DNA from: Ectocarpus siliculosus
Taxonomy: Eukaryota; Sar; Phaeophyceae; Ectocarpales; Ectocarpaceae
Direction of reading: 5' to 3'
Length of the DNA stretch: 64,000 nucleotides
Assembly: GCA_000310025.1 (NCBI GenBank)
Contig: FN649733.1
Span: 566,826 to 630,825, forward strand
Shown: positions 11,699-59,546 of the stretch, in pieces
Numbering within the stretch: the stretch's first letter is position 1
Layout of the letters: each line of letters starts with the position of its first letter
The notes under the pieces: model-generated
The model's input: the letters and a program-made list of their open reading frames with translations, nothing else
What the model was told of the DNA's origin: nothing
Databases searched by the model: none
Made by a program: the position numbers and the translations under genes

Positions 11699-14600
11699 TT
11701 ATCGTCCGGTTGGACTCTCTTTTCTCGCCTTCAGGTCGGCCATTTTGTCCTTAAGGGTGCCGTACATCGGGAACGGCAAGTCGTCCTTCTCGAACACCGT
11801 ACGCCCGCCGATCGACTGGCGGGAGCCTGCACGAGGCCCCTTCTTGACGCTGACCGCTTGGCCCCCCGCCCCCACCCCCCTACTCGTTTCCTCGCCCCCC
11901 TTCGCGAGCCACGCGTCGCGTAAGTCGAACCCGTCCTCCGCGCAGTGGGCCCACTCGAAGGTGTCGTACACGTACGGCAGGGCGTTGATCCGGGGGTCGA
12001 AGGCCGCCAGGACCTCCCGGTTGGTCATGGTGTTGCCCCCTCCCAGCGGGCTCCCCTTTATGCCCGTCTGCACCGTGAAGTCGTTCACCTCGTTGGCGAG
12101 GATGTCGAACGGGAAGATGTCGCTCCCGCGGTGGCCGAGGCACTCCTCCGAGTACTTGCTGATCGGCTGCGAGTAGGCCGTGCCGTCTGAAGCGGTGTAG
12201 GTCACGTCGGCGTCCGGCCACTCGAAGTCCGTAACCTGCCCCGTCAGCACCGAGTACATCCACAGCCGCTCCATCGTCGGGTGCGTCGACCAGAAGGACG
12301 GGTCCAGCGACGAGCTCGACTGTTGGGGAGGAAGAGCGGTCGTTCGGGAAATGTGTTTGTGGAATACAATACAACACTTATCTTCATCCTGACGGCCTGT
12401 CATCGGCCGTACAGAGATTCATAGGCAGGACAAGCGCGGTTTGCTGAGACACTACTGGGGTGTCCGGGCTAAATCGTGATACACAAGTCAGCCGTTAGAT
12501 GCAACATGTAAAACGGCCGACACAGGGAACACAGCGCACAGCCGGAGCGCTACTCGGCGTCAACGTCCAAGAGCTGACCTGCAAGTGATCCCCCTCGTTG
12601 ATCGGGGTGCTGCAGATCACCCGCACAAGCTCCCGCTTGGTGTCCTCGTCCGAGTCACCCATGAGCTCCTTCATGAACACCATCGACTCGAATACCTGGA
12701 GGTAGTCGTCCCCCTGGGTGAGGTCGTACCCGTGGCAGCCGCATACCCCGGACTCCAAGACCTCGTCGGGGGACTCCGTCACCGCGACACTGCCCTCGCA
12801 CGAGAAGATGCCGTCGCGGAACATGTCCTTGCGGTGCACGAACGCCATCAACGCGAGATCGAGAGCGGTTTCCTCGCCGACCAGGTCTTCGATGCGGGCG
12901 CCGTAGGTCTCCTCGCAGTCCATCACGCCACCGATCCAGATGTGCACCGGCCCGTGAGGGTCGTACCTAAGGGCACATCAGGCGGGTATCCTCCGGTAAA
13001 AAATATGGCACCGGAACATTATCATCATCATCATCAATATCCTGGACGAGACCTAGAATGGTTCGACGCCGTAGGCACCACGAGACCTAAAGAATGATCT
13101 TACCTTGCGTGTGTCCCACTTACCGCGCCCAATTGACCGCTGGATCCCTAGACATAACACTATTCCGGGGGCTCGTGACAGCAGCTACAGGCACAAATTT
13201 GTTTAGTGTCGTTTCATGAGCATGGTTGCATCGACTCACAGGCTCTCCCACACCCAAGAGTAGAAGTCGGTGAAGGAGGTGGCTAGGTTGTAGTGGGATT
13301 CACAGGTGGGCCAAGGATAGAAGCTTTCCGCACGCGCATGGCACATCTGCCCCATCCCCCTCGATATGTACCTGCAAGCAGCGACAAAACAAGAAGGGTT
13401 AGACTGCTACGCAAGAAGTGGTTGTGTGACATGTGGTCTTCGTTTCGTGGGCGGGGTAAGAGGTAAGAGCACGGGAGTCGCGTGAGCGGGTTCAGAGATG
13501 CGGCGGTTGGCGATGACAAAAGCGGCGGAATGGCCTCAAGATCCAACCATGAAGGTGCCGATAACGGGTGCAAGACACCACAAGAGACTCCTCATGCACC
13601 TCTGTTTGGCGCAGTTGCAAAGATGCGGATGGCCTCAAACTTGACTTCCTATCCCCCCTCAATGTTGCGTCCCGCCTGCTCTCTCCACCTCTCGCGCTCA
13701 CGCTGCCTTCTTGGCTACGATCACCTCTGACGATCGATTCGTGCACAACCTAGCTTGCTTGCAACGATACAAAAAAAGAGTGGGCCCTTACCGCCGGTCG
13801 TTGACGTTCCACGGCGACCTGAGCTTGCTGTACACGTCCGGCTCGATCTTGCTTGGGTTACCGTCCCTCATTTTCGGGACTTCAACCTTAGCCCATCGGC
13901 CATTTTGTACCTGGCGGTCCGATTCCGGTGTCGCGGACGCAAAATGAGGCGCGACAAAGCATGCATCGCAAACGGTTCATGGCGATAGAGGGGTACGAGG
14001 GGGTCGGCGTGAGTGTTTCGACGGAGAAATGTCTGGGAGTTGCGTGAGTTTGAGGTAAAAACGACGTCATGACTGCACGAAAAAAAGTGTTCAGCACATA
14101 TCTTTACGACTGGGGTCATATTTCGAACGGGAAGTCTTCCTGTGAGATAATGTTTACCGTAAACGAAAGTGTGCGTGTCGGTAACCAGAGCAGCACGTGG
14201 CTGATACAGTACTCTCACCCCAACAACCGTACATGATACCCCTCCCCCCTCAGCCTCATCGCGGGAGCGGGGCGTGATCAAAAGCACCCGAAGGGAGGAA
14301 AAAAACGAGACAAAGCAGCAACTCTCTTTCCCTACCCCTGCCGCCAAAGAATCGTACCATTCTGGTGGTAGGGTCTGCTGTGCCGAACCAAGACTCCTGG
14401 AGTAAGGGAGTCTTTATCTTGGAGCCAAACATGTCGTCCAAGTGCTCGTTGGCGGCGATGCCAGCGGTGGAAGACTCGATGGTGAAGTCCCAGTAGGGGA
14501 GGGTCAGCTTGGGGTTGACCTGCTGCAGGCTGTTCTCGAACGTGTTGGAGATGAGGCCGTGGTTGGTCAAGAAGCCCAGCCCGTCGTGGAACTGTTCGTT

Positions 14601-16198
14601 GTTCCGCAAGAAGACCAGACGAAGAGACCGAAAGAGGGGTTGGAAACAGGACCCAATTTCCCCGGTTGCATCCATTGTCCAACATGTTTACTTGAAAGAA
14701 GTTTCCAGTCGGTTTCAATCCGCCTACTGAAAACACTTCAACACATGCCTCTCGACTCTCGAGTGTGTATTTTTACTTTCTAAAAAAAACACTGCGAATG
14801 CGAAGGTTGCTGAGGATGGGGCATGGGGGTCTTGTGTACCTCTTGTGATTAGGGCAACACTCCCCGACATTTCACGAACATAGATGTCTACCTTCATGTG
14901 GCACGCGTGCGAACATAGCGCAGACCCATCAAAGGAACCCCGATGCGGTCAAAGGACCGGGGGGATTGCAGCAGTTTCCCGAACGGTTTGTCGTATTCAG
15001 TGAAAAAAAAAAATACAGCAAGGTGCGTGCCTTTTCTGAACCGGCAAAAATGACGGCCCCACCAACTAACTCACGTGATCGCAAAACTGAGGGCTCGCGG
15101 CCTTGAAATGCAGGCGATTAATTGCCCAGATGTCCGAGTAGTTCTCTCCGTATTTTTCCCTTCCGTCGCCGTCCTGCACTCGTACGCTCCACAGCTCAAG
15201 CATCTGTAAAGGACGGTACGCGGTTCAGCAGAGTCAGCCTTTTCCGACCTCATGATGCGCGAAAAAGTGAGCCTTGCCCTTATTTCCTGCACCTTCTCGA
15301 TTCAGGGGCTGGAACAGAGAGCACGGCGGGAATCCACCTTTTGCTGCCCCGTCTCCCTTCGAGTCGACAGCCAACACGCCTCACTCAGCCTGCTGCGCAC
15401 GCGAGAGACCTGACGGCACACCTCCTCCCGCGGCCGCAGCACACGGGACCCTTAACTCTCCACTCCAAAGTGTGCTCTGAGCACACATCGCGCTAGCTCG
15501 CTCACCGCGTCAAGCAGCTCCTCTCGGTCCTCGTCCGTGAGGGTCCTGATCTCCCTCCGCACGTACTTCACCATGACGAACTCGTCCAGCCTCCGGGCGA
15601 CCGCTCCCGTCGCGATCTCCACCTCCTCCAGCGTCACCAGGTTCTCCTCCAGGTGCTTCGCCTCTAGCACAACGACGGCCTCCGCCCCGCTCGCCGCCGT
15701 GTGAACCTCGGAGGCGCTGCTGCCGCCGCGGATCAGCCAGCGGTACTCGAAGCCCTCGCGAGGGTCGTCGACAGAGAGGGTGGTCTCGCGGTGGGGTTCG
15801 ACGAGCTTGACATCCCGCAGCCAGGGGTAGTCCGAGGCCGGCTTGCCGTCCCTCAAGTGGTACAAGTTTCGGGCCTGGAACGCGAGAGGTGGGGGTGTCG
15901 TCGTCGACAGCCCAGGCCGGTCACTCGTTTCTCTCCCCTTGTTGTCCACAAAGCTCTGCAGCGTGCTGCTGCTACTGCTGCTGCGGGTTGCTGCCGCGGT
16001 GTGCACCCCCGCGCGGCTGGTGGCGGCTACCCCTAGCGCGAGCGCAAGCGCCAGCCCGATCTTCGCCAAGCCTCGCCGCGGCTTTCCGTCGTCGCCCTCA
16101 TCGAAAAATGGGTGCTCTCCCTCCGCTGACGGCGTCGCTGCTGCCGTCGCGGGATCGCCTACAGATCCGTACCCTCGAGAACCTAGCTGAGGTGGCAT
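11699..16198 (-). CDS. TYR1: membrane-anchored tyrosinase-family copper oxidase
   Basis: Seven exons: 15506-16198, 15075-15203, 14358-14591, 13792-13910, 13240-13371, 12579-12966 and 11699-12319; about 771 residues. Tyrosinases hydroxylate monophenols and oxidise o-diphenols to quinones with two type-3 coppers. The tail has YGSV at 10-13, then a membrane segment at about 44-60. CuA: RLH in exon 2, then FHDG and TNH nine residues apart in exon 3, followed by LPYWDF. CuB: PHGPVHIWIGG in exon 6 and STHPTMERLW in exon 7. Relative to its paralogues it has an extra intron between 'WESL' and 'YDPHGPVH', and it lacks both the intron after the FVHRKD region and the intron after the DxFxFDIL region. 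The frame is open throughout, so it looks functional. Substrate is unknown. Confidence 0.88.
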
Positions 16199-21400: not shown

Positions 21401-24103
21401 TCATCCCGATGTATACTGCTTGTAGAACACATGTTCGATCGCACGGGTGTCAGGTCACACAGGAGCTCGTCTCTTCTACATCGTGTGTATGCTTCGATGA
21501 AATGAAACTGCAACACCCGACGGGACTACCATCCAACCATTGAGACTTGCGTCTGACTGGTCACAAAGACACGGCAGTCTCGGGGGTGGGGAAACACACG
21601 GGGGAGGATGTTCCGCCACGCGCGACCGTCTCGCTGGATTTTGAGCAACGCCCCGAATTTGGCATGTATCTTGAGGAAAAATACATACACACACAGAAAG
21701 ACTACCCATTCGAGATATACCCTTAGTCGAAGGGGATGTGGTGAGTCGAGTCTTCTCAGTGAGTGGAGGAAAACCGGCTGAGTACTGGACTAATTTCGAG
21801 TCTTTTTGAAGTCTATACACTGATAATTTATAGTATCAGTGGTGCCAGCTGAATCTTGTTCTCCCTCGGGCGGGGGACACACACGGGGGAGGATGTTCTG
21901 CCATGCGCGACCGTCTCCCTGGGTTTTTGGAAACGCGCCGAATTTGGACATGTATCTTGTTCGCCATGCGCCAACAGGTACATAGGCAGACCGCACTCGA
22001 TCTCCGCGCACAACACACCGAACAGCAGTCGGTCCCAACGTTAACCCAGAACATCTCTGTCAATGCCGGGCTTATTATTTTTTTTTGCCGATGCAAACAC
22101 AACACGAAACGTACTTCTTGAAGTATCTGCTAAATGAGCACGAACGGGTATCTCCGTGTGAAGGATATGTTACGCCAGGCAACAACAGAACACACATGCG
22201 CACGGAGATCTCCGTGTGAAGGATATGTTACGTCAGGCACAGCAGAACACACATGCGCATGGGTATCTCCGTGTGAAGGATATGTTGCGCCAGGCAACAA
22301 CAGAACACAAAATGTCTGGAGAACACAATTCCGACGAGCTCATTGTAGCGGCCTTCACCCTCTTACACGCTACTGCTGTAGATCGTTACATCTTGAGGAC
22401 ACACAAAAAGTAAACCATGGTATACAATGCTTTCTAAGAATAGACTCACGTGATCGCAGTCCAGCGGGCTTGCTGCCTTGTAGTGCAGACGGTTGATGGC
22501 GTAGATGTCTGCGTAGTCATCTCCGTACAGCTCCTTGCCGTTGCCACCGTCCACTCTCACCGTCCAAAGCGTGTACATCTGTTGTGGAGGTCGACAGCGA
22601 CATTTGCGAGGGAAACCGTTGTCAGGACGAACAGGTACCCATCGAGGCGGCAACGTGACATCGCGGGCAGCTATACATTATTGAGCATTTACTGCTGGTT
22701 TCAACACCACGGCGGGATGCGTTGTTTGAAGGAAATGAGTTTTCGTCTCTTGTGCTCCGCGATTCCACATGCACTTTCCGTACACCCGTCCGTATGCATA
22801 CCGTAGGTTGCGTGCGTAAGGTATCACACCCACAGGACCAATTTTCAAAGCTCGAATACTCTACGACGAAGAGGATATGCCGAAATCAAAGGATGTGTTT
22901 TCGGAAAGCTCTCGACGAGACGGTTCCATCGCCGCCGGTTTCGGCACGGTCGCTGCTTTTCCTGCCAGAAATCGAGCTTTGAAAATCGGTCTACGGGGTG
23001 TGATATCTTATGCAACCTACGGGTACAAGCACGTGACTGATGGCGTCAACTACGGGTCTTTCACACGGAAATATATTGCCCGGCGAACGCTGCGCGAGTC
23101 GCGACAGGCCACAATGGCCAAAGCATGGGGGACGGGAGTGCGGGGGATTCGAAAGGCGAGATATCTCCGTGCTGGAAAGCGGCTCAGCAACGATGGTTCG
23201 CTCAGCGGCTAGACGTCTCTGCACATTAATTTACGGGAAAATTAAGAAATGACAGCAGTCTTTGTGTCGTGTGTCTTCTGCGCGAGCGGGTCTGACTGCT
23301 CCTGCTGCTGTGCAAGGTTTGTTCTTGTCATCAAGCCCACTCACCGCGTCAAACAGCTCCTCCCGCTCCTCGTCCGTGAGGGTCCGCAACTCGCGGCGGA
23401 CGTACTTGACCATCACCTTCTCCTCGAGCCTTCTTACAACCACGCCGGTCTCCGCGTTTACCTCCTCCAAATCAATCATGGTGTCATCGAGGACGGTCAG
23501 GATCATCACCGTCTCGGCACCGCTCGCTTCGGCACGCACGTCGTCCTTGTCGGCGTCGGCGCCACGCACGGTCCAGCGGTACTCGAACCCGTCCCGTGGT
23601 GACGATACCGTGAACGTCGTCTCGCGGTGCGGCTCGATGAGCTTGACCTCCTTGAGCCACGGGTAGTCGAGCGCCGGCTTTCCGTCACGAATGTGGTAGA
23701 AGTTTGTCGCCTCGAACGAGAGGGGGGCCAGCTCCGTTGCGACTCCTGGCCGGGAGTGGTGGACCTTGACAACAGCAGGGGTGTCGTTGACCTCCACGCT
23801 GCCGCTGCCGCTGCTCCGCGCGATCCCGGATGCCTCGATCATCGACTCCGTTGGTGCTGTCTCTAACGTTGTCACCGGAGGAAGGTGATACCCCGCCTGA
23901 GCCAAGGCTACCATCACGCCCACGGCGAGCGTGCCCACAACGGCAAAGCTAAACCATCTCCGCCCGCTAGGTTGCTCTCCTCTCTCCGTCCCGTTCTCCC
24001 GAAGGTGGTCGAACGACAACACAGGCGTTGCCTTCGCGACATCGTCTTGCTCGACCGATCCGTACTTCCTCCTCGGCAGCGTCGGGGAAGATTGGAAAGA
24101 CAT
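18454..24103 (-). CDS. TYR2: membrane-anchored tyrosinase-family copper oxidase
   Basis: Seven exons: 23345-24103, 22450-22578, 20957-21181, 20424-20542, 19857-20190, 19322-19504 and 18454-19017; about 770 residues, all junction phases consistent. The tail has RRKYGSVEQD (YGSV at 14-17) and a membrane segment at about 51-68. CuA: RLHYKAASPLDCDH, then FHDGLGFMTNH and VPYWDF. CuB: DPHGPVHIWIGG, a Cys-rich insertion (QCGCLGYDLTQG), then SFWPTHPTMERLW. The last exon ends in a Lys/Ala-rich tail. It has a standard single exon 5 and lacks the intron that splits the last region of TYR3-5. It is divergent from TYR3, 1.35 kb away. Intron 2 (1268 bp) carries a dispersed repeat and a short tandem repeat. 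Confidence 0.88.
21578..21960 (+). repeat. ~95-bp direct repeats flanking a dispersed repeat
   Basis: The block from about 21578 to 21672 (sharing acacgggggaggatgttc and gcgcgaccgtctc) recurs at about 21862-21960. Copy 3 of the dispersed repeat lies exactly between them. All of it is inside TYR2 intron 2. Confidence 0.75.
21665..21850 (+). repeat. Dispersed ~180-bp repeat, copy 3
   Basis: It matches copies 1 and 4 along its length, ending in the palindrome cactgata...tatcagtg. It is located in TYR2 intron 2. Confidence 0.8.
22146..22311 (+). repeat. Short tandem repeat, three units of 56-59 bp
   Basis: The phrase tatctccgtgtgaaggatat (or a one-base variant) starts near 22149, 22208 and 22264, each followed by gtta/ttgcgcaggca and cagaacaca. 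It lies in TYR2 intron 2. Confidence 0.9.
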
Positions 24104-25453
24104 GACGGTTTACAAAAAGAAAGGACTCGCTCTGCCCCTGCTGCGTGCCCAGTCGGATGAATGGGGTGGGTGCTCTGGCCGTTCTTTGTCCTACTCGCTC
24201 TTGCTTGCCCTCGTCTTCCGCCCGCTGCAGATGCGGCCGGGTCGAGCGTGTTGTGCAAGACCGGGTGAGCTCTGCTGTGTGCAAAGGTCTGGTGTGAAGA
24301 AAGCGTGATGGATAGGGAGGGAGGGCATCGCGTGACGGAGACACAGAAAAAAAAAAATGAAGGATTTTCTAAGGAATTTCCCATAGGCACACTTAGGTGT
24401 TTGCGAAGTTGAATTTCAGTTTCATCTTGGTCTTTTTGATCCTCCCGAGCGCCGAAGACCGATGGATCTTTAGGAATTCAATCTTTTGCTTTATGGAATT
24501 GCCCCCAAAGACCGCAGGAAAGCTTGAATTCAGTCTTGCTCATTTTGGTCTTTGAAGGAACAATTTTTGATTGGCCTACACACCCCGAGATACTCCCGAC
24601 GTCCTCCCGACACCGCCGCACCAACCCGTGGAGCTGCCCAAACACACACACCTTGGCCGCCGTAGACGACACCATGCATGGCGAACCAACTACAAACAGC
24701 AGCAGTGCCGCCAGACCACAGACGGTCAGACAAACGTCGCTGCACCGCACACCCGGTGCGCATTGATTGCATGCTGCCACCAAAACAAAACCAAAGGCAT
24801 AACGCAAAAAACACCTGAGTATTTTGATTGGCCGAAAGCCGCACAGTCTCTCGTCGCCTAGCTGTAGGTAAACTGTGGGAACCGGGAACCGGGACGGGGA
24901 CTAAACTGTAAAAGGTAAAAGGTATACGCCTGTTGCAATATGTATAGCACCCACGAGGAAGCACATTGGTGCACAGAGCACATCCCACACCTCACAACAC
25001 CTCCGTACCCCATACTCTAAACACGGCACTCGACAAAGAAGGGTCACCAACAACGCGGGGAAAATTGCGTTGCAAGCGATGTCGTATGTTGTGATCATTA
25101 TTATTATAGGTATTCGATCATGATCCGTGACAAATCATCACGTTCTCCCAAACTCCTCATGCGTACCACAGCCGTGACAACGGCGTCCCATCGTCCCATC
25201 CCATCCACCATCCACCCTTTCACGTTCTCATCATTCTGTCCACACGTATGCATACAACGGCGGCTGGTCTGTGGTTCGCAGACCTGATCAGGGGGGTATA
25301 CTTGTAGGTACAGAAGTTTTTCGGTCACGGCACCTTTGTTCGGGCCTTTTGTCACGGAGTCACGCCGGTGGGATTCACTGCCCAACTGTCGCACATCCCC
25401 ACAGCCACACGTCCCTGCCGACTTCCGAGGGAGAGAAAGAGAGCAGTACCACC
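24104..25453. promoter_or_regulatory. Divergent intergenic region between TYR2 and TYR3
   Basis: The 1350 bp between two opposed start codons must hold both promoters. The 200 bp before TYR3 (from about 25249) is conserved upstream of TYR4 (from about 44272), including gttcgcagacctg, ttttcggtcacg and gtcacggagtcacg. These are candidate core-promoter or 5' UTR sequence. No TATA element can be assigned with confidence. Confidence 0.45.
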
Positions 25454-28400
25454 ATGTCACTCCAATATGCTCGGCAGAAGTATGGATCCGTGGAAGACCC
25501 GACCAAGTCGAGGCGCGCCGTCTCTCCGACGCCAACTGCCCGTGGTGATGATGCCGGTGCCGCCGAAAGAGTTTCTTTCGACTTTGATCCGTCGCGCGCT
25601 TTGCGTGGCGAGAGCGCGGACGACCAAGGGGGAGGGAAGCGATGGTTCACCCTTACGGTCGCCGGGGTGCTAGCCGTGGGAGTCATGATGGCCCTCACCC
25701 ACGCGGGATACCGGTTGCCCAAGGTCACGAGGACAACAACAGACGTCGGCAGCCAAGGCCACACTCCGAGCCTGATCCGCGCTGACGAGGCCAAGATCCT
25801 TCCCAGCGAAGACCTTGCAGTGGAGGACGACGAGAAGAAGCAGGTGGCTCGACCGTTCCCGATAGCCGACGTGTCTCCGCGTGCAGAGGACGAGACACCT
25901 CCTGCTGCTGCAGAGGACGGGCAGCTCTCCGGAGAAGAGATCCCGCGGTTATCATTCGAGGCGACCAACTTCTACCAACTGCGTGACGGGAAGCCGGCCC
26001 AGGACTACCCGTGGCTCAAGGACGTCAAGCTCATCGAGCCCCACCGCGAGACGACGTTCACGGTATCGTCTCCACGGGACGGGTTCGACTACCGCTGGCG
26101 GGTGTTCGCCGGAAGCGCGGCAGAGGGAGAACTGTGCACCGAGGCGACAGGGCCGGAGAGTACCGTCGTCCTGACCACGCTCGATGAGAACGAGGTTGTC
26201 CTCGAGGAGGTAGACGCGGATGGGACGGTCGTACGGCGGCGGCAGGAGAAGGTGATGGTCAAGTACGTGAGGAGAGAGATCAGGACTCTCACGGACGATG
26301 AGCGAGAGGAGCTGTTTGACGCGGTGAGTGAGTCATTGAGTGTGATCTGCACCTCTGCACTATTGTTTTTGTTCGATTTTTTTATCATGTCCAGATAGAA
26401 GCGTATCGCTGCTGCTCTTTCCTCCGCAGTTATTTGGTTTTATTTAAACGTTCCTTTGCAGCAGGCCATCATCCTCGTGCGGAGGCAGATTGCACGAATT
26501 GTTCAATGCAGAAGCGCTATACGCTATACGCGGCGGTATGCTTATTTCTGCTGAAAAACCTAATGACGTGGGTGGATAAATTGCTTCTGGCGTACAGCAG
26601 GTGGTGCTGTGTCTTTTTCAAACCCCCATGATCCCCTGTGCGTTGTATGCTCACGTGTGCCACACATGCCAAGAGAAAGCGTGCCGCCTGACGCTATGCG
26701 TACTATCTATCGTACGTTGTGACGTTGAATCTATAATACCGCTGCTGCTGTGGCGAACTTGCTCTCGTTTTGAAATGGACGCCCCCCGCGTGTGTCATCT
26801 ACACGCATTGCGTTTAACAACCACGTTCTGGTACAAACGCAGATGTTCACGCTTTGGTCAGTGAGAGTGGACGGCGGCAACGGGAAGGAGCTCTACGGAG
26901 ATGATTACGCGGACATTTTCGCGATCAACCGCCTGCACTACAAGGGAGCGAGCCCATACGAGTGCGACCACGTGAGTGGTCATTGGCATGCACGACACGC
27001 TTTCACGATATATATGCAACCTCTCTTGACTTTGTAGAGAACCGTAAGCAGGTCCCCTTTACATGCATTTGGTGAGAGCATAATCGGGGCCAACACTCCT
27101 GTTTGATAATCCGGTGTCCTACTGCTGTAGACTATGGTGGTGGTGTGGAGTACACTGTAATGCAGTAGTTCGAGACATGGATGGCACCGGGGTGCCCGTA
27201 TTCAGCACCACCGCAGCACCAGCAAGGCCGCTGTGTGCTCTGTGTGTGTCTGGACATCATACTGGATGGCACCGGGGTCCCAAGCAAACACCCTAAGCGT
27301 TAATTTTATGAGATCGCACCCGGTGCCATCTCTCACCACGGATCAACAATATCCGTTCCTGGCCGCTTCCTTGAATGTCGAATCTCCCATATATGTGTAA
27401 TGCATAAAAAAAATGCACAGTTGTGCCATCCTGTTGTTCGCTTTTTCTGTTTTTTTCCTTATTTTCCTTGTGCGGGTATGGCGGTAGTTAACCAAGCACA
27501 CAAGATTAGCAGAAGTGCAGAGACCTATTGTAGGAGATGGATGCGCTCGTTCGGTCATCCTCACGCTGCTGAGGTTTGTTGACCAGAACAGGCCGCGACA
27601 CGCGCAGAGCACCCTTGGACATGGCTGATATATCCGGCCTAAGTGCAAGCGGTCACATATGGACTCCACAACACCACACGAAACACGAAACCCGTGCGTG
27701 TTCTACGTAGAATTTACGTAAGGTGATGCGTCCTCGTTTTACAATTTTTTTTTCCTTCTTGGAAGTATTGCGCACGAACCCACCGGTGCTTCTTTCGAAC
27801 GTGCACCAGTCCGATCTATCAATGTGATCGTGGCAATTTTATGTGCATTGGCAGAAACGAACGATCTAGTAGTGCTGATTCGCTCTCCCCCCCTTGTGGC
27901 GTCTTTGCCCCTTGAACAGTTCCACGACGGTCTCGGCTTCTTGACCAACCACATCGTCATAACCAACACCTTTGAGGCCAGCCTACAGACAGTGAACCCC
28001 AAGCTGACTTTGCCGTACTGGGACTTCACGATCGAGAGCTCTACCGCCGGTACTAAAGGCGATGGAGGATATCAGTCCCAGACCAAGAGCGAACTGTTCC
28101 AGGAGTCTTGGTTCGGAACTGCGGACCCTACGGATGGCCAAGTGAGTTTCTGTGTTTGGTTCCTCGCACAGAGAGGCGAGAGGAGAGGAGGTTCTGAGGT
28201 CGAAAGCAGGGTCATTGATTGGTCGTCGTCCAAGGCTACGGCGGGGAAACAAGCCCCACAACACCTGTTTTCGCGTTTCTTGCAAGATGCTGTAGTCAAA
28301 AAACGCTTGTTCGTGAATACCTATGCGTACAGTCGACGTAACAAAAAGCTGTCGTGAATGAGGGCATGTTCCGCAGAAGAAAAATATCCGTGCCTCCCCC

Positions 28401-37571: not shown

Positions 37572-37577
37572 CGTAAT

Positions 37578-39107: not shown

Positions 39108-39162
39108 GTTCCACCAAGCATAGACAAAGTTTAAAAAATTCCAACCTCCTTCCCATTTACAG

Positions 39163-44495: not shown

Positions 44496-47400
44496 ATGTC
44501 ACCCCAATATGCTCGGCGGAAGTATGGATCCGTGGAAGACCCGACCAAGTCGAGGCGCGCCGTCTCTCCGACGCCAACTGCCCGTGGTGATGATGCCGGT
44601 GCCGCCGAAAGAGTTTCTTTCGACTTTGATCCGACGCGCGCTTTGCGTGGCGAGAGCCCGGACGACCAAGGGGGAGGGAAGCGATGGTTCACCCTTACGG
44701 TCGTCGGGGTGCTAGCCGTGGGAGTCATGATGGCCCTCACCCACGCGGGATATCGGTTGCCCAAGGTCACGAGGACAACAACAGACGTCGGCAGCCAAGG
44801 CCACACTCCGAGCCTGATCCGCGCTGACGAGGCCAAGATCCTTCCCAGCGAAGACCTTGCGGTGGAGGACGACGAGAAGAAGCAGCAGGTGGCTCGACCG
44901 TTCCCGATAGCCGACGTGTCTCCGCGTGCAGAGGACGAGACACGTCCTGCAGAGGACGGGCAGCTCTCCGGAGAAGAGATCCCGCGGTTATCATTCGAGG
45001 CGACCAACTTCTACCAACTGCGCGACGGGAAGCCGGCCCAGGACTACCCGTGGCTCAAGGACGTCAAGCTCATCGAGCCCCACCGCGAGACGACGTTCAC
45101 GGTATCGTCTCCACGGGACGGGTTCGACTACCGCTGGCGGGTGTTCGCCGGAAGCCCGGCGGAGGGAGAACTGTGCACCGAGGCGACAGGGCCGGAGGGT
45201 ACCGTCGTCCTGACCACGCTCGATGAGAACGCGGTTGTCCTCGAGGAGGTAGACGCGGATGGGACGGTCGTACGGCGGCTGCAAGAGATGGTGATGGTCA
45301 AGTACGTTAGGAGGGAGATCAGGACTCTCACGGACGATGAGCGAGAGGAGCTGTTTGACGCGGTGAGTGAGTCAATTGAGTGATGTGCACGTACATGTAT
45401 ATGTGCAATATTGTTTTCGTTCGATCTTTTTTTTCAGATAGATGCGCATCGCTGTTGCTCTTTCCTCCGCAATCGAGAATTTAAGTTTTTTTTTGCGTTT
45501 TCACAGCATGCTCGTGCGGAGGCAGATTGCACGAATTGTTCAATGCAGGAACGCTATACGCGGCGGTATGCTTATTTCTGCTGAAAAACCTAATGACGTG
45601 GGTGGATAAATTGCTTTTGGCGTACAGCAGGTGGTGCTGTGTCTTTTTCAAACCCTCATGTGCGTTGTATGCTTCACGTGTACCCAAGAAAAAGCGTGCC
45701 GCCTGACGCTATGCTTACTATCGTACGTTGTGATGTTGAATCTATACTACCGCTGCTGCTGAGGCGAACTTGCGCTCGTTTTGAAATGGACGCCCCCCGC
45801 GTGTGTCATCTACACGCATTGCGTTTAACAACCACGTTCTGGTACAAACGCAGATGTTCACGCTTTGGTCAGTGAGAGTGGACGGCGGCAACGGGAAGGA
45901 GCTCTACGGAGATGATTATGCGGACATTTTCGCGATCAACCGCCTGCACTACAAGGGAGCGAGCCCTAAGCAGTGCGACCACGTGAGTTGCCGTTGGCAT
46001 GCACGACACGCCTTTACGATATATATGCAACCTCTCTTGGCTTTGTAGAGAACCGTAAGCAGGTCCCCTTTACATGCATTTGGTGAGAGCATAATCGGGG
46101 CCAACACTCCTGTTTGATAATCCGGTGTCCTACTGCTGTAGACTATGGTGGTGGTGTGGAGTACACTGTAATACAGTAGTTCGAGACATGGATGGCACCG
46201 GGGTGCCCGTATTCAGCACCACCGCAGCACCAGCAAGGCCGCTGTGTGCTCTGTGTGTGTCTGGACATCATACTGGTTGGGGAGATGGCACCGGGGTCCC
46301 AAGAAAAAAGCGTTCAAGTTTATGAGATCGCACCCGGCGCCATCTCTCCCATCCTTGAGGTAATGGAGATGGAGTAAAATTTGCGTCGATTTTCCCTTGC
46401 CGTGCTTTGCGTAGTCACGGATACAAACATATCCATCCGTCCCTCGCCGCTTCCTTTAAATTTCGAATCTCCCATATGTGTAATAATGCATAGGTGTGCG
46501 ATCCTGTTGCTGTTGTTCGCATACAATACGGGTAGCCTTCCCTGACCCATTCTTGGGAAAAATAAAGACACACCCAGCGAGACTACTCGTTCGAGATATA
46601 CCCACACTCGAACGGGATGTGGTGAAGTATTTTCAGTGAGTGGAGGAAAACCGGCTGGGTACTGGACAAATTTCGAGTCTTTTTCAGTCTACACACTGCT
46701 GATGATTTATGTCAGTGATACCAGCTGGTGCTAAGTACAAAAACATCTGTACAGGTAACCTTCATGTAAGACATCTGAACCAAATGGTATTGCCGAAGCA
46801 CCGGCGATGGCGTCGCCTCAAGATCTGTCCATAGCTTTTTCTCGCTTTTTTTCTAATTTTCCTTGTGTGGGCACGGCGGTAGTGAACCAAGCACACAAGA
46901 TTAGCAGAAGTGCAGAGACCTACTAGGTAGGAGATGGATGCGCTCGTTCGGTCATCCTCACGCTGCTGAGGTTTGTTGACCAGAACAGGCCACGACCCGC
47001 GCAGAGCACCCTTGGACATGGCTGATATATCCGGCCTAAGTGCAAGCGGTCACATATGGGCTCCACAATACCACACGAAACCCGAAACCCGTACGTGTTC
47101 TACGTAGAATTTACGCAAGGTGATCCGTCCTCGTTTTACAATTTTTTATTCTTCTTGAAGTATTGCGCACGAACCCACCGGTGCTTCTTTCGAACGTGCA
47201 CCAGTCCGAACTACGTATCAACGTGATGGTGACAATATTTTTTGTGCCTTGGTAGAAACAAACGATCTAGTAGTGCTGATTCGCTCTCCCCCCCCTGTGG
47301 CGTCTTTGCCCCTTCAACAGTTCCACGACGGTCTCGGCTTCTTGACCAGCCACATCGTCATTACCAACACCTTTGAGGCCAGCCTACAGGCGGTGAACCC

Positions 47401-50400
47401 CAAGCTGACTTTGCCGTACTGGGACTTCACGATCGAGACCTCTACCGCCGGTACTAAAGGCGATGGAGGATATCAGTCCCAGACCAAGAGCGATCTGTTC
47501 CAGGAGTCTTGGTTCGGAACTGCGGACCCTACGGATGGCCAAGTGAGTTATTGTGTTCGGTTCCTCGCACAGAGAGGCGAGAGGAGAGGCGGTTCTGAGG
47601 TCGAAAGCAGGGTCATTGATTGGTCGTCGTCCAAGGCTACGGCGGGGAAACAAGCCCCACAGCACCCACCACGAGTGGAGCGAACGGTTGTCTGACAGTC
47701 GATCGGAGTCAAACAATCGCCGCACATACATAGGTTCACAGGGCAGCCAATCACGTGCAAGCGTTGCCCCTTCTCCTTAAACCGCGGGACCCCCTTTCGT
47801 GGCGTCTGGTCAGGTTTCTGGGGCTCGGGGAGGTTGTTGCTTTCACGTTTCTTGCAAGCTGCTGTAGTTGACGGAACAGAAAGCTGCCGTGAATGGAGGC
47901 ATCTAACGGAGAGGAAAGTATCCGTGTCTCCCCTGGCTCTTGAGTCGGAGGGTACGCAATCTTTGAGTTAGCGTACAATACCGTTCGGTAGGCGACGGCT
48001 GGCTAACAAGTGCTACTTGCTACCAAATTTGTTTACCACCACGTTGGCCTGCTAGAAGGGCGCTCCGAGAAAATGCTTGGAACGGTTCCAGCACCGGTCT
48101 TCGTAACACGGCAGAATCCCCGTGACCGTTTATTCTTGCCCTATGATACAATAGAGTGAAAAAAGAACGCAGTGGCATCACCTCCCGCCGCTGGCGAAGC
48201 CGCTCTCCCCCGACCAAACCGCTCGTTCGTTTTTGATGATCGTGCTGACGTCTTGTCCCGTGACCCGCATTCGTCCTTTTCTTGTGAAAAACTTTTGTGG
48301 TTTCGTTTCATCAGGTAAAGGATGGCCGGTGGGCCTACACCGAGATCCCGAAGATGAAGGTCAACGACCCTGGCGCCGTAGAGCCGGACGTGTACAGCAA
48401 GCTCCGTGCTCCGTGGAACGTCAACGACCGGCCGTGAGTCGTCGCCCCTACCGGCAGCAGCCCCACCCTTGCTTTTTCGCTGAATGTAGACCCGTGCTGC
48501 TGTTTCCACCCCGGACAATCTCATGATGAGTAGTCTTGTGCCTTACCCGTGCTGCTGTTTCTACTCTCGCCTTTTACCCACAGCAAGCTGTCTGCTTGTT
48601 GCCCGGGTACCTACTGAAAGCTTGCTTGTACGTGCGGGTACCTGACCCCCTCCATCCCAAACGCCACCTACCATCGGCAGGTACCTGACCCGCGGCATGG
48701 GCAAGATGTGCGACGCCAAGGTGGACGAGTGGTACCCTTGGCCCACGTGCGAGACGCACTACGACCTTGCCACCGGCTACAGCGACTTCTACTCGTGGGT
48801 CTGGTACTCCCTGTACGACCCCCACGGGCCGGTGCACATCTGGATCGGGGGCGTGTTGGACTGCGAGAAGACATTCGGCGCCATTGCCGAACTCGTGGGT
48901 CCGTCCATCGCCGAAGACCTGGCGCTGTACTCGTTTATCCACCGAAAGAACCTGTTCCGAGACGGAATTTTCTCCTGCGTGGGAAGTGCCACGGTGGTAC
49001 AGGCGCCGGCGGAAGTGAGTTAGGTTCCGCCGCATATTGTTGTAAAACCCTGGAGAGGAGACAGGTACCGTTGTTGGACCTTTACTACCCGGAGATTCAA
49101 GCCTACCCTTTTCTCTCGCGCTTCTTACTGAATGTAGTTTTTTTTTGTTCAGTAACACAGCAAATTTATCTCTCCCACAAATTGAGAGCCCGTGATAGAT
49201 AGATTAGCAACGAATTCATACAAGTAGTTTGGAATGACTACCATTTGTTTTAGTCGGAGAGTTCTTGTCTACAAATGGCCCAATCGCACCCGAACGGTAG
49301 TCGCTCAATTCTGTTTTCGCTTGTTGTGGAACGGATGGGCGTCAGATGGCTGCTTTTGTGTTGCCAGTGACGTCAAGCTTTTACGTCTCTTCGCCGTCGT
49401 TCCACGGCAGCTCTGGGCCCCGAGTTTCCAGTTGTGTTTGCCGTGAATCACGAGCGAATAACTGCGCTATTTTAGGGATTTTTTGCTCGGCAAAGCTATG
49501 CATACCAACCCCGAGCGGCCCCGCTGCGGCTACTTGGCCTCCCTGTGGCATGCTGGCCCGGGGTTGATAGAAATAGCTGTGTTTGCAGGGTCCCTCGCGA
49601 TGAACGGTATGTGTACAGCACAGCTTACCTGAGCTCACGGCAACAACTCTTTCTCTCGTTTGGATTTTTGCTGACGACGCATGCGACGGGCGGTAGGTGC
49701 TATCCAGCGGCCAGTGCGGCTGCCAGGGGTACGATCTCACCCAAGGGGATGACTACGAGTCCATCTACTACAACATGGTGGACCTCGATGATCTCATTGG
49801 TGATTTCGACGCGGACGTGAAGCGCCAGGTGGTGGCGGCGCTTTGCACGACTACTATGAACGACGGGGATCACTTGCAGGTGCGTTGATAACTCTCTCCG
49901 GTGCGTGCAGCGCTGGATTGTGCTGTTCGTAAGCCCTTTCTACGCCAACGCAGTAGTGCTGGTGGTGACGCGTGCGAGAGCTGGGGCGTTTGCTGTTCCC
50001 ATATCACTCCTGGCGAACGCTTCTGTTCCGTCCGATGTGTGGCTTTACTTTATTGTACGTCCTTGATGAGAGTCGTTAATCGTTCGACGCCAGTTCCTCC
50101 GAAGCGCACGACTTGACTCGGGCGGAACACTCATAAGCGTGTTTTGGTTGGCTCCTTGCTCCTCGTCCTGCGCGCGCATACAGGCGAGCTCGTCCCTAGA
50201 CCCGTCCTTCTACGCTACGCACCCGACCATGGAGCGGCTGTGGATGTACGCCGTGCTGACGGGGCAGATCACGGACTTCACCTGGCCGGACGACGACGTC
50301 ACCATCACCAAGCCCGACGGCACTGTCGAGGTCGAGTCGCTCAGCCTCTCCGAGGATGCCTGCCAGGGGCACGGCGGTAGCGACGTGTTCCCCTTCGGCC

Positions 50401-51314
50401 TCCTGGACTCCGACACGGACGGCTTCGAGGTAAGATGAAGCGAGGTATTCATGTTGACTTCGTGTAGCAAGACTTTATATTACAGGTTCGTAAGAAAGTA
50501 TTTTTGTGTTGGCTGAGGTTCGCTGGGCAAGTAACACGTCAGCTATACGAGCTGTTCGAGCTTGGGAAACGTCACAGATGGCGGTCACACCAACAACGCT
50601 TTGCTTTGATCACGCCTCGATGAAACTATAATACGAGTATACTCTGATGGGCCCGCCCACTCCGGAGCCCCGCATTACATTCACCATATTTTCCGTCTTG
50701 TCGGCGTAGTTCAGGGAAGATTCGAAGCCCCGGCCTACCCTGGATGTTCTACACTTCTTTTTTTCTCATGCCGAAACTTCCCCGCTAGCTCTGTGGTGGT
50801 CGCTTTCTCTCGGCGACAAACATGACGCTGTCCTTGGCGAATCTGCTAACTTGTTTCGATGGAACCGAGTGTCCCAGAGGTAAGCCTCTAGGTCTAACCG
50901 TCAGCTCCCGACCCTAACTTACACCTGTCCGGTGACGCTACTCTGCCTGGCGGCGGTGATACATACATTTTTTCATGTCTTTTTTTGTTTTCGTTACGTA
51001 TTTCTTTTCAGGTGAAGACGGGCGTCAAGGGCATGGAGAACGGGAACACCCTCACCAACCGAGAGCTCCTCCAGGCCTTCGATGCCCGTTCCAACTCGGT
51101 TTCTTACGTGTACGACACCTTCAAGTGGACCCACTGCGAGGCCGACGGTTTCGACTTCGACGATGCCTGGAACGGGGCAGCACAGGCAAGACCCACGTCA
51201 AGCAGCCGCCGACCTTCTTTCAAGCAGGGTGCCCCACGAGCCCCGATGTACAACATCTTGGAGGAAAAACGGGCAGCTCGCGCGGCCAAGAAGGCTGCCA
51301 ATCTGATCAATTGA
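44496..51314 (+). CDS. TYR4: membrane-anchored tyrosinase-family copper oxidase
   Basis: Eight exons: 44496-45362, 45854-45982, 47321-47542, 48315-48433, 48681-49014, 49697-49879, 50184-50429 and 51012-51314; 800 residues. It has the same domain order and copper ligands as TYR3: YGSV at 10-13, one membrane segment, RLHY / FHDG / TSH for CuA, PHGPVH and ATHPTMERLW for CuB. In exon 3 the third CuA motif reads LTSH where most paralogues have LTNH; the ligand His is kept (TYR5 shares this change). Further changes from TYR3 include one residue fewer in the linker, YGET replaced by SEDA after the third CuB His, and KQCDH for YECDH before exon 3. Exons 4 and 5 and their introns are identical to TYR3. 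No disabling change is seen. Confidence 0.9.
46521..46836 (+). mobile_element. ~315-bp insertion in TYR4 intron 2 carrying dispersed repeat copy 4
   Basis: TYR3 intron 2 runs directly from gttcgc to ctttttctg (about 27435). TYR4 has about 315 extra bases between the same words, including 46556-46736, which matches the dispersed family at 9372 and 21665. No clear target-site duplication is visible. Confidence 0.7.
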
Positions 51315-54300
51315 TCAATATTTTGTTTCTCACCCGGGGGGGGGGATTGGTTGTGATGTAATTTCGGGGTGTGGTGGGCGGGGGAAGGGGGGGGGGTCAG
51401 GTTAGGAACTATGCTGCTCGCCTTTCTGTTGCGTTATCTCTCCGTCTGGTGTGAGCTTGCTTTGTTGAGGTGTTCGTCCAAACGATCGTGTTGGGTGGTT
51501 GTCTTTCTGGTGTATTAATTGTTATATTTAATTCTTTTGGTGTGCACGGGTTCGCATACCTCAGTTGCTTTTGGCGACGGTCGAGAGGGAAGGGCAACCT
51601 CGCCCTCTCCGTTGGTCCAATTCTATCGTCCCCGTCGGTTGTAGGCAACGACGAAACGAGTGGTGTACGTCTACCTCTCTATACATCAGTCATATTTTTT
51701 TATTTATCAACGCGACAAATATCTCCGCAATTTTGTTTGCCTCTCAGCGAAAAAAGAGGCGAGCTGTGGTTACCGGTGGGTAGATATTTAGCGTCAACGA
51801 CGAGTTGAGGTCACTGATTCAGTCACAACCAAAGGCGTTCGGGTTGTATCTCGTTCATGGGAACATGTTTTGAAGGTTCCTTACGCGTGTTCGCGGCGCC
51901 ACTGTGTTTTGGGACAAACAAGTGTTGAAGCGCTTTGTACTAGTTGGCATGCAGGTATTCTGTTGCCCGTCACATGATGATTGTTGATGTATAGCTCGTG
52001 ACGTTGTATATCCCTGCATGTTCCCGGGGCAGTGGCAGTTTTGAGCTTGTGTGTTGCCGATTGCGTCCTGTCTGCGTTCAATGTTGCCCCTGAGGGTCAC
52101 AAGAGAGGGGGGGTATGGCTGCCGCCTGTACCGGGCGGAGACAAGCAATCAATGCGGCGGTGATCCTGTCTTCTGTCATGGTGTCAAGCCACACCATACC
52201 TTGAGCACCCTGTTCTGCCTCCCGAGACGAAACCCTTGATGACGATAATGCTAAAAAAAAGCCAGCTTTCCTCTTTTGGTTGTTGAAGAGTTCGCGACGT
52301 TACACCTTTTCTGTTCATTGTGGCGTCTTGTCTGTGTGTGTGTCTTTGTTATTGGCATCGACCGCGCTAGCCGACTGACCAATGAAAAGACGTCATTCTG
52401 TTTTTTTATCTCTCTCACGCCCGATTCGAGATGCTTGGGCGGGTCGCTGGCATGCGTCAAATCGAGCAAAAAACAGAACGTGCTCCCGAAAACGAAAAAA
52501 AAACGGTGCCGATATTCGTAGGCATAGACTACGTCTGTAGCACTCGCAACCGCGCGGGCGTGTTGCCAACGGATGTCGTCATGGTGTCGGGGTTCGAACC
52601 TAAGCACCCATCGCTCGGCCAAAAAACAGAGAGCGGTACAGTACGTCAAATTCGGGTCGAGCTTCAATCCCTTTATTCGTGTCCAAGGACCAGCCGAAGT
52701 AGTTCGTTTTCTTAAACGGCATTTCTTATTCCTTTGGAATCCGCATTCTCCCAATCCTCTTATTTCCCACTCCGTATATTTTCTTACTTGGCTAAAGAAT
52801 ACTTCGAAATACAACACAACAAAACGGTCATCATGCCGCTCAACCAGGAAGAAAACTCGTGTAGCAGCCGTTGGTGTGGCGAAATAACCACACTCTCCCG
52901 ACCAAAAAAATGCACTGTTGTTCAGGTAGGTAGGGGGGTGGGAACACGGAAGGAGCAGCGGTGGGACGCTTCTTTTTGGGCACGCTCCTCCAGCTACCCC
53001 TTGTTTCTTATATCTTGGGGGTATCGCGCCTTCATGTTTCTTATTGGGACATTTCTGACGTTGGTTGTGTGGCCGAGAGTGAGCTATGTTTCTTAAAGCC
53101 CTTTCTTCATATTTTCGCAATAATTTTGAGCCTGTTTTTCTTGTCAGAGTTGCGGGCCCGTGCTGTGGGGCATGTACGATACTTGGAGCCCATGACGTCT
53201 CCGTCATCGAACCACACACACCCAGTCGCACAACTACATCGTCACTTAACCAAAAGGATCTGTGTAGGTAACTTAGTGTTTTCTTCACATTTAGAACCGT
53301 TCGTTCCGGTCTTCACCCATTGCTGCCTTGTACCCTTGTAGCATCCGTACCGGTCCAACTGACGCGGAACATCCGTACTGGTCCAACTGACGCGGAACAT
53401 CCGTACCGGTCCAACTGACGCGGACGCCTTCCGTCCGTGGTCACAGCCTAACTATACCCAAAGAGGGTGCACATTCTGAGAGGGAAAAATCTCAAGAGAA
53501 AATGAAAAATAACATGGATCCGGAAAAAGCAACACACACACGCACGCACGCGATGATTTCTTGTAGACTGTCATACATGGTCTACATGCAGAACACACGC
53601 AGCAGACAAAAATATAAAAGGCCCCACACAGTCAGACGTTGCCGCCGACATATCGGGTAAAGGGGGTAAACTAAAATAGAGCATGCCGTCAGTTACCCTT
53701 CGGCACGCGATGCCAAGCGAAACAAATATAGAAATGACGATCGCCGATAAAGACAAGTACAACCGAATATCCTTGTATCATACCCCTTCTACATAGGGTG
53801 GGGTGTATCCTCCGCCCTGCTTGGTGTGATGCTCCACCGAGCGGCCGCAGCGCGCGTGACATAGCGATGATCAACCACAAGACCTACCGAGGGCGTGCGT
53901 GCTCCTGACCACAACAACACCGCAAATTTTAGGCACTATGGGCGGTGTCCGCCCACATCAGGCAGGGCGATTTGCGAATTGGTTCGTACTGATTAGGCTC
54001 GGGCAGGACCGAACGCCTCGCCAATGACTGTGCTGCGGGTGGGTGAGAGAGAGTACACTCGTAAGCGCGCCGAATCTCTCCTACATGCTTACATTGCTCA
54101 CGAAAAAAGGTACAGCCATCGTGTAAATATCTGTCTGTGCTTATAAAAAACAACAGTTGTTCCTTAGAAGCACCGTAAAGATAGCCTGTACTTGTTGAAC
54201 AACTAAAGCTTTGCACTACAAACAAGTTGTTGGCTACAACGAGAAAAACAAGACCAACCGGCGCCGTTTACCCACGCCGCATCCCATCCAAAGTCGCTGT

Positions 54301-56144: not shown

Positions 56145-56176
<32 letters not shown>

Positions 56177-59100: not shown

Positions 59101-59546
59101 GCCGGCTTCCCGTCCCGCACGTGGTAGAAGTTGAGCGCGGTGAAGGAGAGAGGTGGCGACACGTCTCCCTGTTGCTGTCGCTTCTCCTGTCCCTCTTGCT
59201 GCTGGTGCTGGTCCTGGTCCGAGGCAATGGGGAATGCCCTGCCGACAACTGGACGATCCTCGACAAAGCTGCTGCTTCGTCGAGCAGCCTGTAAAGATGC
59301 GTTGCTCTCGGGGTCAACAGCACCCTTGACGGCTGAAGTGTCCGGCAGCAGACGGGATCCGATCGCAATCATCGCTGTGCCAACGAGGGCGAGGGATCCG
59401 ACGAGGGCGAGGATGAAAGCGGGACGTGTCCCTCGGCCACCTTGTGCCCTATCTTTCGTTGCGATCGAAAACCGGTCGGTGTACGTAACCCCCCCGGAGG
59501 ATGACCCTGCCGCACCCGAATCTACGATAGACCCGTACATCTTCAT
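54560..59546 (-). CDS. TYR5: membrane-anchored tyrosinase-family copper oxidase
   Basis: Nine exons: 58725-59546, 58132-58260, 57310-57537, 56921-57039, 56637-56703, 56237-56503, 55756-55935, 55060-55305 and 54560-54859; about 785 residues. I chose the ATG at 59546 because it places MKMYGSI at the conserved tail; an in-frame ATG at 59597 would add 17 residues. Membrane segment at about 43-63. The linker has a Gln-rich insertion (DQDQHQQQEGQ). CuA: RLHYKAAS, FHDGLGFLTSH, LPYWDF. CuB: DPHGPVHIWVGG and STHPTMERLW. An intron unique to this copy splits exon 5 between PWPT and CTSHYDL. The donor of exon 3 (gtgtgtgtgt) lies inside a GT microsatellite. It is the most diverged member with TYR1. Confidence 0.87.
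56144..56175 (-). repeat. (CAA)n microsatellite in a TYR5 intron
   Basis: About ten uninterrupted caa triplets on the plus strand (ttg on the sense strand of TYR5), upstream of exon 55756-55935. Confidence 0.95.

What the first reader, a model, noticed from the sequence alone, without database searches (positions are those of the whole stretch)
11699..59546. Cluster of five membrane-anchored tyrosinases with an unusual architecture
Five intact paralogues (minus, minus, plus, plus, minus) share a layout of cytosolic tail, single anchor, beta-rich region and tyrosinase core. Classical tyrosinases are soluble or have a C-terminal anchor. An N-terminally anchored, clustered family suggests a dedicated phenol-oxidising system, perhaps for phlorotannin or cell-wall cross-linking. 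The architecture is read from sequence; the biological role is inference.
Basis: partly seen in the sequence, partly recalled or inferred. Interest (0 to 1): 0.75.

Follow-up and report, generated by a model that had tools for sequence, protein, structure and literature searches.

The report
Membrane-anchored tyrosinase-like gene cluster, brown alga
A brown alga carries a side-by-side set of five intact copper-oxidase genes of the tyrosinase kind whose proteins appear to be pinned to a membrane by their front end, and they could be the missing enzymes that oxidise this alga's defence phenols.

Summary
The window carries five intact tyrosinase-family genes (-,-,+,+,-; 770-801 aa) spanning exactly 11699-59546. 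All 34 modelled introns are GT-AG; PF00264 matches five of five proteins and is the only Pfam match. Each has a 42-63 residue tail, one hydrophobic segment, an Ig/FN3-like domain and a core with all six copper histidines.
The architecture is not special to the cluster. One relative lies about 121 kb further along the contig, four are on other contigs, and a more divergent one keeps the same tail and segment. Twenty-six related loci were found in the genome. Linked clusters of such genes in Ectocarpus were printed in 2013, filed as secreted.
I predict membrane-anchored polyphenol oxidases rather than classical tyrosinases, delivered by the secretory pathway.
Phlorotannin as substrate fits, but nothing here tests it. 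Whether the segment stays as an anchor or is cleaved needs an experiment. New variant of a known kind.

The parts
11699..16198 (-). T1, 771 aa; exons 15506-16198, 15075-15203, 14358-14591, 13792-13910, 13240-13371, 12579-12966, 11699-12319
   Evidence: PF00264
18454..24103 (-). T2, 770 aa; exons 23345-24103, 22450-22578, 20957-21181, 20424-20542, 19857-20190, 19322-19504, 18454-19017
   Evidence: PF00264
25454..31775 (+). T3, 801 aa; exons 25454-26323, 26843-26971, 27920-28141, 28781-28899, 29147-29480, 30167-30349, 30653-30898, 31473-31775
   Evidence: PF00264
44496..51314 (+). T4, 800 aa; exons 44496-45362, 45854-45982, 47321-47542, 48315-48433, 48681-49014, 49697-49879, 50184-50429, 51012-51314
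   Evidence: PF00264
54560..59546 (-). T5, 785 aa; exons 58725-59546, 58132-58260, 57310-57537, 56921-57039, 56637-56703, 56237-56503, 55756-55935, 55060-55305, 54560-54859
   Evidence: PF00264
16016..16072 (-). T1 hydrophobic segment (residues 43-61), the weakest of the five (longest run without D,E,K,R,N,Q,H is 15 residues)
23900..23956 (-). T2 hydrophobic segment (residues 50-68)
25643..25699 (+). T3 hydrophobic segment (residues 64-82)
   Evidence: modelled as a helix at 65-83 with low confidence
44685..44741 (+). T4 hydrophobic segment (residues 64-82)
59361..59417 (-). T5 hydrophobic segment (residues 44-62)
25946..26254 (+). T3 Ig/FN3-like beta-sandwich domain (residues 165-267)
   Evidence: AlphaFold2 of exon 1 with the five window sequences: ten-residue block means 76-91 from 161 to 270 except 55-58 at 171-200; structure comparison best Z 9.6
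27920..28141 (+). T3 exon 3, carrying HisA2 and HisA3 of copper site A
29147..29480 (+). T3 exon 5, carrying HisB1 and HisB2 of copper site B and the start of the long insert
30653..30898 (+). T3 exon 7, carrying HisB3 (motif THPTMERLW)
25351..33008 (+). segmental duplicate, copy containing T3
   Evidence: five blastn blocks, 87-94% identity; dS 0.043
44388..52165 (+). segmental duplicate, copy containing T4
   Evidence: five blastn blocks, 87-94% identity; dS 0.043

Best explanation
The five genes encode type-3 copper oxidases held in a membrane of the secretory pathway as type II proteins: a short cytosolic front tail, one hydrophobic signal-anchor, then a variable linker, an Ig/FN3-like spacer and the copper head in the lumen or outside the cell. 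Shown: intact genes, the domain order, all six copper histidines, a single dominant hydrophobic segment, a Y-G-(S/A) motif in every tail. Inferred: type II orientation (long tail before the segment; ten invariant cysteines all on the far side). Inferred: a polyphenol/diphenol oxidase rather than a tyrosine hydroxylase, because the residue after HisB1 is Gly or Ala, the seventh His is lost, and no acidic residue stands four or nine residues before HisB1. Inferred, and weaker: the tail motif sorts the enzyme to a phenol-storing vesicle (physode) or the cell surface, where it oxidises phlorotannins so that they couple to each other or to the wall. The family grew by local and dispersed duplication, which continues (T3/T4).
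For: Gene models. PF00264 alone in 5 of 5. Profile match to solved haemocyanins, o-aminophenol oxidase and tyrosinases, aligning HisA2, HisA3 and HisB3. Six ligands in 10 of 10 genes. One hydrophobic segment after 41-63 residues in 10 of 10. Front tail free of Cys in 5 of 5 window proteins and ten invariant Cys beyond it. Y-G-(S/A) in 11 of 11 tails; shuffled tails give 0.40 on average, at most 4 in 5000 trials; whole tails are 30% identical on average among seven diverged members while the motif is 90%. HisB1+1 is Gly in 8 and Ala in 2 of 10, HisB2+1 is Ile, Leu or Thr, HisB3-1 is Thr, Ile or Met, no Glu/Asp at -4 or -9 in 10 of 10, read against the review PMC8049008 (passages); -4 is the plant position (Glu248/His252), -9 is a recalled bacterial position. 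The same genome's canonical tyrosinase on C26 keeps the HH pair, and a frame beside it that I take for its copper-B exon has Asp after HisB1 (not assembled). Physodes arise from ER/Golgi, some are exocytosed, and phlorotannins are supposed to be activated by an enzymatic oxidation before cross-linking (PMC7570113, passages).
Against: No expression, localisation or activity data. T1's segment is short and Ala/Leu-rich (run of 15), as is L005's outside the window (15), so cleavage is possible. Net charge of the 15 residues on each side does not favour type II in all: in T1, T3 and T4 the far side is the more positive. The fourth motif position is Val/Ile in 8 of 11 but Thr in 3 of 11, so the recalled YxxPhi sorting rule is not met by three. 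Four of the five relatives outside the window (L001, L002, L004, L005) do have Cys in the tail. Other acidic residues do lie ahead of HisB1 (Asp at -13 in 9 of 10, variable at -6, Asp at -2 in the five window genes), so a displaced waterkeeper is possible. Loss of the seventh His and of the usual Glu lowered activity in several studied enzymes, so activity could be weak. No PF00195 match lies on this contig. Brown algal phlorotannin cross-linking is usually ascribed to vanadium haloperoxidases (recalled).
Confidence: 0.5

Rival explanations
1. [quoted passage not shown]
For: PMC3658974 assigns Ectocarpus to the secreted alpha subclass (sections 5 and 6 read). Small residues that could suit a signal peptidase follow the segment in several members (my reading of the sequences). 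T1 and L005 have runs of only 15 residues.
Against: Front tails of 41-63 residues in 10 of 10, runs of 16-23 residues without D,E,K,R,N,Q,H in 8 of 10, and a tail motif conserved in 11 of 11, which would be pointless if the tail were only a discarded signal.
Confidence: 0.22
2. Not an oxidase of phenols in practice: the copper site binds oxygen or copper, or is weak, and the protein acts as a carrier, copper sink or structural/adhesion molecule through its Ig-like domain.
For: The best solved-structure match is a haemocyanin (KLH1, E 1.8e-7). Second-shell residues that support catalysis are absent. A 132-135 residue spacing separates HisB2 from HisB3.
Against: All six ligands kept in 10 of 10, and the core up to HisB2 is the best conserved long region (67% mean identity among seven diverged members). 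Matches to o-aminophenol oxidase and tyrosinases also appear.
Confidence: 0.18
3. A wound or defence melanin system: true tyrosinases acting on tyrosine-like monophenols.
For: PF00264 membership and tandem expansion as in other lineages with tyrosinases (PMC3658974).
Against: Gly/Ala after HisB1, no Asp/Asn after HisB2, no Glu at the waterkeeper positions considered, seventh His lost, 10 of 10. The review notes tyrosinases with Gly or Ala after HisB1, so this is not excluded.
Confidence: 0.08
4. Plastid enzyme, like plant polyphenol oxidases.
For: Most plant enzymes carry a plastid transit peptide (PMC8049008, passage).
Against: No match to a narrow ASAFAP-like pattern in the first 150 residues of 10 of 10; the long tail ahead of the hydrophobic segment does not look like a bipartite plastid signal (inference).
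Confidence: 0.02

Closest known systems
Type-3 copper proteins, alpha subclass (Ectocarpus siliculosus linked genes; PMC3658974)
   Same: Probably the same kind of genes (inference; its gene lists are in supplements not open to me): type-3 copper core, linked clusters in a brown alga
   Different: [quoted passage not shown] here a long tail precedes a hydrophobic segment in ten of ten genes, with an Ig/FN3-like domain modelled in the window copies
Metazoan gamma subclass / melanosomal tyrosinase
   Same: Membrane-held copper head facing a lumen (here inferred)
   Different: Mammalian enzymes have a signal peptide and a C-terminal membrane segment (PMC8517187 and PMC8049008, passages); here the segment is N-terminal and none was seen at the C-terminus in 5 of 5
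Molluscan haemocyanin KLH1 (4bed) and o-aminophenol oxidase (9t62)
   Same: Among the best profile matches, mainly over the copper-A region
   Different: Best matched stretches cover only about 100-120 residues; no counterpart of the tail, segment or long insert was aligned
Plant polyphenol oxidases (catechol oxidase, aurone synthase)
   Same: A residue other than Asn/Asp after HisB1 is seen in studied catechol oxidases (Ile, Thr, Gly, the last in a fungal one)
   Different: Plant enzymes mostly have a plastid signal, a C-terminal shielding domain and a seventh His, and CgAUS has a 30-residue HisB2-HisB3 spacing (256/286)
Canonical tyrosinase of this same genome (C26:1037278-1040072)
   Same: PF00264, best match of the genome
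   Different: Keeps the HH pair and a Cys two residues before HisA2; likely Asp after HisB1 (exon not assembled); no similarity to the ten cluster-type proteins at E 0.05

Membership tests
Type-3 copper protein / PF00264 tyrosinase domain | Profile match over the curated cut-off | tested here: met
   5 of 5 window proteins match; T1 53.4 bits against 22.6; bit scores of the other four not shown by the call
Type-3 copper protein / PF00264 tyrosinase domain | HisA1(n)HisA2(8)HisA3 and HisB1(3)HisB2(n)HisB3 | tested here: met
   10 of 10 genes
Type-3 copper protein / PF00264 tyrosinase domain | Binds two coppers and oxygen | not testable with these tools
   needs purified protein
Alpha subclass (secreted) | N-terminal cleaved signal peptide | tested here: inconclusive
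   hydrophobic segment present but after 41-63 residues; no signal-peptide predictor was at hand
Gamma subclass (membrane-bound, metazoan) | C-terminal transmembrane segment after the copper core | tested here: not met
   no C-terminal hydrophobic peak in 5 of 5; the second peak in T3 and T4 (1.27) lies inside the core
Classical tyrosinase (monophenolase) | Asn/Asp after HisB1 (common, not universal) | tested here: not met
   Gly in 8, Ala in 2 of 10; exceptions known
Classical tyrosinase (monophenolase) | Waterkeeper Glu ahead of HisB1 | tested here: inconclusive
   Leu or Met at -4 and Trp or Tyr at -9 in 10 of 10; other acidic residues exist nearby and only a structure could tell
Classical tyrosinase (monophenolase) | Seventh His (HisB3-1) | tested here: not met
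   Thr, Ile or Met in 10 of 10; some other family members also lack it
Classical tyrosinase (monophenolase) | Hydroxylates monophenols | not testable with these tools
   enzyme assay needed
Type II single-pass membrane protein | Uncleaved N-terminal signal-anchor, tail in the cytosol | tested here: inconclusive
   one hydrophobic segment in 10 of 10; net charge of the 15 flanking residues in T1-T5 does not settle it (N side -2,1,0,0,3; C side 2,-1,2,2,1)
YxxPhi sorting signal (rule recalled) | Tyr-x-x-bulky hydrophobic in the cytosolic tail | tested here: inconclusive
   8 of 11 tails have Val/Ile at the fourth place, 3 of 11 have Thr
Ig/FN3-like domain | Beta-sandwich fold | tested here: met
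   seven strands over 168-267; VIA-align best Z 9.6, rmsd 2.3, 86 aligned; Foldseek none at E 0.001 or better; a fold class only, Z near 8 is common

The most novel reading that the evidence does not exclude
Brown algae evolved, independently of animals, a membrane-tethered phenol oxidase family that is sorted by a conserved tyrosine-based tail motif to physodes, the phlorotannin vesicles, and supplies the unknown oxidation step of phlorotannin coupling and wall cross-linking: a counterpart, built the other way round, of tyrosinase in the melanosome, with a copper site B stretched by a cysteine-bearing insert of about 100 residues and retuned from hydroxylase to polyphenol oxidase.
Probability: 0.22. 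Interest if true: 0.78.

Novelty: new variant of a known kind. Interest (0 to 1): 0.5.

Why it matters
How phlorotannins are oxidised and bound into the brown algal wall is described as unknown in detail in the paper I could read (PMC7570113, passages). A membrane-held, secretory-pathway copper oxidase family expanded in this genome is a concrete candidate, with testable residues. If the anchor is confirmed, it also qualifies a published statement that membrane-bound type-3 copper proteins are present only in animals (PMC3658974).

Tried and rejected
Relatives outside this genome: one scan each of genome contigs (92 stretches matched a pattern) and viral contigs (210 stretches) with the five-protein alignment confirmed none. 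NCBIfam gave bacterial tyrosinase models far under their cut-offs (T1: 32.5 bits against 450). Foldseek found no PDB match at E 0.001 or better for the exon-1 model. The insert between HisB2 and HisB3 was folded alone from T1's exon 6 without an alignment: mean pLDDT 37.8, useless. That the C8 genes form one clade was not supported: T1, T5 and L001 come out on an open fork beside the T2/T3/T4 and L002-L005 groups. The idea that tails never contain cysteine was dropped when relatives outside the window showed some. A strict YxxPhi claim was dropped (3 of 11 have Thr). Assembly artefact for T3/T4: thought unlikely, because the copies differ at silent sites (dS 0.043), differ in repeat number and lie on one contig; reads were not at hand.

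Literature: ten searches, all that were allowed, of open-licence PMC papers only; several lists were cut (for example 20 of 36 shown). Eleven papers were opened. Of these only PMC3658974 treats brown algal type-3 copper genes as a family. The others that bear on stramenopiles: PMC6418280 places one tyrosinase gene near a fucokinase locus, PMC8278619 and PMC4108028 name single tyrosinase genes in expression tests, PMC12089773 has the word only in its reference list, PMC8780586 lists tyrosinase among secreted oomycete proteins, and PMC3681718 says that tyrosinase domains take part in species-specific new domain combinations in an oomycete; all passages only. The last means that unusual tyrosinase architectures in stramenopiles are not without precedent. 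The large brown algal comparative genome paper of 2024 that I recall did not appear in the listings, so 'not in print' is not claimed.
Full report
WHAT WAS CHECKED. The window lies at G000:C8:566826-630825 of a 189-Mb assembly in 492 contigs. EsV-1-7 repeats, which I recall as expanded in brown algae, are very numerous (150 of 150 scored matches pass, 880 candidates). PF00195, type III polyketide synthase, matches at three places, none on this contig. I accept 'brown alga' as well supported, not proved.

THE GENES. Comparing the copies in all frames gave conserved exon cores; flanks were read for splice sites and the models assembled (T5 corrected). Five intact proteins of 771, 770, 801, 800 and 785 residues result, 54-57% identical to T1 and 97% for T3 against T4. 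All 34 introns are GT-AG. The exon layout is shared, with a few differences: T1 and T5 split exon 5, T1 joins exons 5 and 6, T1 and T2 lack the last intron. Two segments of about 7.7 kb carrying T3 and T4 are recent duplicates.

THE LAYOUT. Tail of 42-63 residues and one dominant hydrophobic segment. Mean pairwise identity among seven diverged members: tail 30%, segment 38%, linker 21%, Ig/FN3-like domain 61%, core to HisB2 67%, HisB2-HisB3 stretch 52%, C-terminal part 54%. The beta-rich region, modelled from the five exon-1 sequences, is a seven-stranded sandwich (ten-residue block means 76-91 from 161 to 270 except 55-58 at 171-200; whole model only 52.9, pTM 0.37). The nearest solved folds are domains of glycoside hydrolases and fibronectin-type domains (Z 8.0-9.6 in the rows shown), with no Foldseek match at E 0.001 or better. 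This is a common fold and says nothing of function.

NOT ONLY A CLUSTER. Searching the genome with the beta domain and with the core found ten loci with both: the five, one more on the same contig 121 kb beyond the window (L001), and four on C144, C2, C9 and C1 (L002-L005). The five extra genes assemble to intact proteins of 721-759 residues; L004 and L005 each need one GC-AG intron. A divergent eleventh (L006, C186) has tail, motif and segment too but was not assembled. One search also shows a lone fragment of exon 1 on C26 (291260-291427, 75% over 55 residues) with no core match beside it; it was not fetched. Counting matches to the copper-A part of the query (E up to 0.01) gives 26 loci, the five included; such counts are lower bounds and the weakest (C282, E 0.003) may be chance. 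One canonical tyrosinase on C26 is found only by PF00264. Of the 21 loci outside the window I fetched 20 (not C282), and also the C26 one (L007). The signature EP-(H/F/Y)-(R/K)-x-T of the beta domain was seen in 6 of the 15 divergent loci (L006, L008, L010, L011, L015, L020). Upstream frames that could be anchor exons were seen for L015 (with a YASI motif) and, less clearly, L018, not joined. For the rest I could not assign one, and the search was by eye; how far the anchor reaches in the wider family is open.

THE TAIL MOTIF. Y-G-(S/A) occurs in 11 of 11 tails; shuffling each tail gives a mean of 0.40 and a maximum of 4 in 5000 trials. With one tail per close group it is 8 of 8 against a mean of 0.35, maximum 3. 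Shuffling ignores common descent, so the fairer comparison is with the whole tail: 30% mean identity against 90% for the motif. The fourth residue is Val or Ile in 8 and Thr in 3. A sorting signal is my favoured reading, by recalled analogy with tyrosine signals; a phosphorylation or binding site is possible.

THE COPPER SITE. The six histidines are at 263, 276, 285, 440, 444 and 578 in T1 and in the matching places in 10 of 10 genes; HisA2, HisA3 and HisB3 also align with haemocyanins. HisB2 and HisB3 are 132-135 residues apart, with 5-6 cysteines between them, against 30 residues in aurone synthase. HisB1+1 is Gly (8) or Ala (2), HisB2+1 Ile, Leu or Thr, HisB3-1 Thr, Ile or Met. In studied enzymes these positions tune hydroxylation against oxidation, with known exceptions (PMC8049008, PMC7693034, passages). 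The canonical tyrosinase on C26 has the HH pair and, in a frame I take for its copper-B exon, Asp after HisB1. My inference is a polyphenol oxidase that hydroxylates poorly. Loss of the seventh His and the usual Glu may equally mean a weak enzyme, and other acidic residues ahead of HisB1 (Asp at -13 in 9 of 10) could stand in.

WHAT IS KNOWN. [quoted passage not shown] So clustering is known; the N-terminal anchor, the tail motif, the Ig-like domain and the long insert were not described in the parts I read (its supplements were not open to me). PMC7570113 (passages) says physodes come from ER and Golgi, some are exocytosed, and phlorotannins are supposed to be oxidised by an enzyme before they are cross-linked, the detailed mechanism being unknown.

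VERDICT. New variant of a known kind, moderately interesting, with clear tests.

Noticed in passing
locus L001 (G000:C8:751651-755901): A sixth, intact gene of the same architecture about 121 kb beyond the window end, with Ala after HisB1.
   Followed up: yes
G000:C26:291260-291427: A lone piece of the family's exon 1 (75% over 55 residues) without a core match beside it; perhaps a dead fragment.
   Followed up: no
loci L010-L013 (G000:C9, about 2834000-2889000): A second, divergent linked group of four tyrosinase-like loci.
   Followed up: partly
locus L017 (G000:C18:2125000-2130500): A close relative of L009 with in-frame stops in the copper-A region, probably a dying copy.
   Followed up: no
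locus L007 (G000:C26:1037278-1040072): A canonical tyrosinase (HH pair, Cys-x-HisA2) without sequence similarity to the cluster proteins at E 0.05; useful comparator.
   Followed up: partly
window 32151-32735 and 51750-51839: A 194-base unit in three head-to-tail copies after T3; a 90-base part of it matches once after T4 at 96%.
   Followed up: no
window 38439-42020: Between T3 and T4: four open frames tested gave no Pfam match at E 0.1; one has a TSPPY stretch that recalls DNA methyltransferases. Perhaps part of a mobile element.
   Followed up: partly
window 3240-4187: A 100-base N gap (3788-3887) between two direct repeats of 74% identity; sequence quality may be poor here.
   Followed up: no
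window 62439-62738 and 62957-63256: A direct repeat of 300 bases shown at 100% identity.
   Followed up: no
window 6799-8421 (-): Open frame with weak TPR matches, all under the curated cut-offs.
   Followed up: partly
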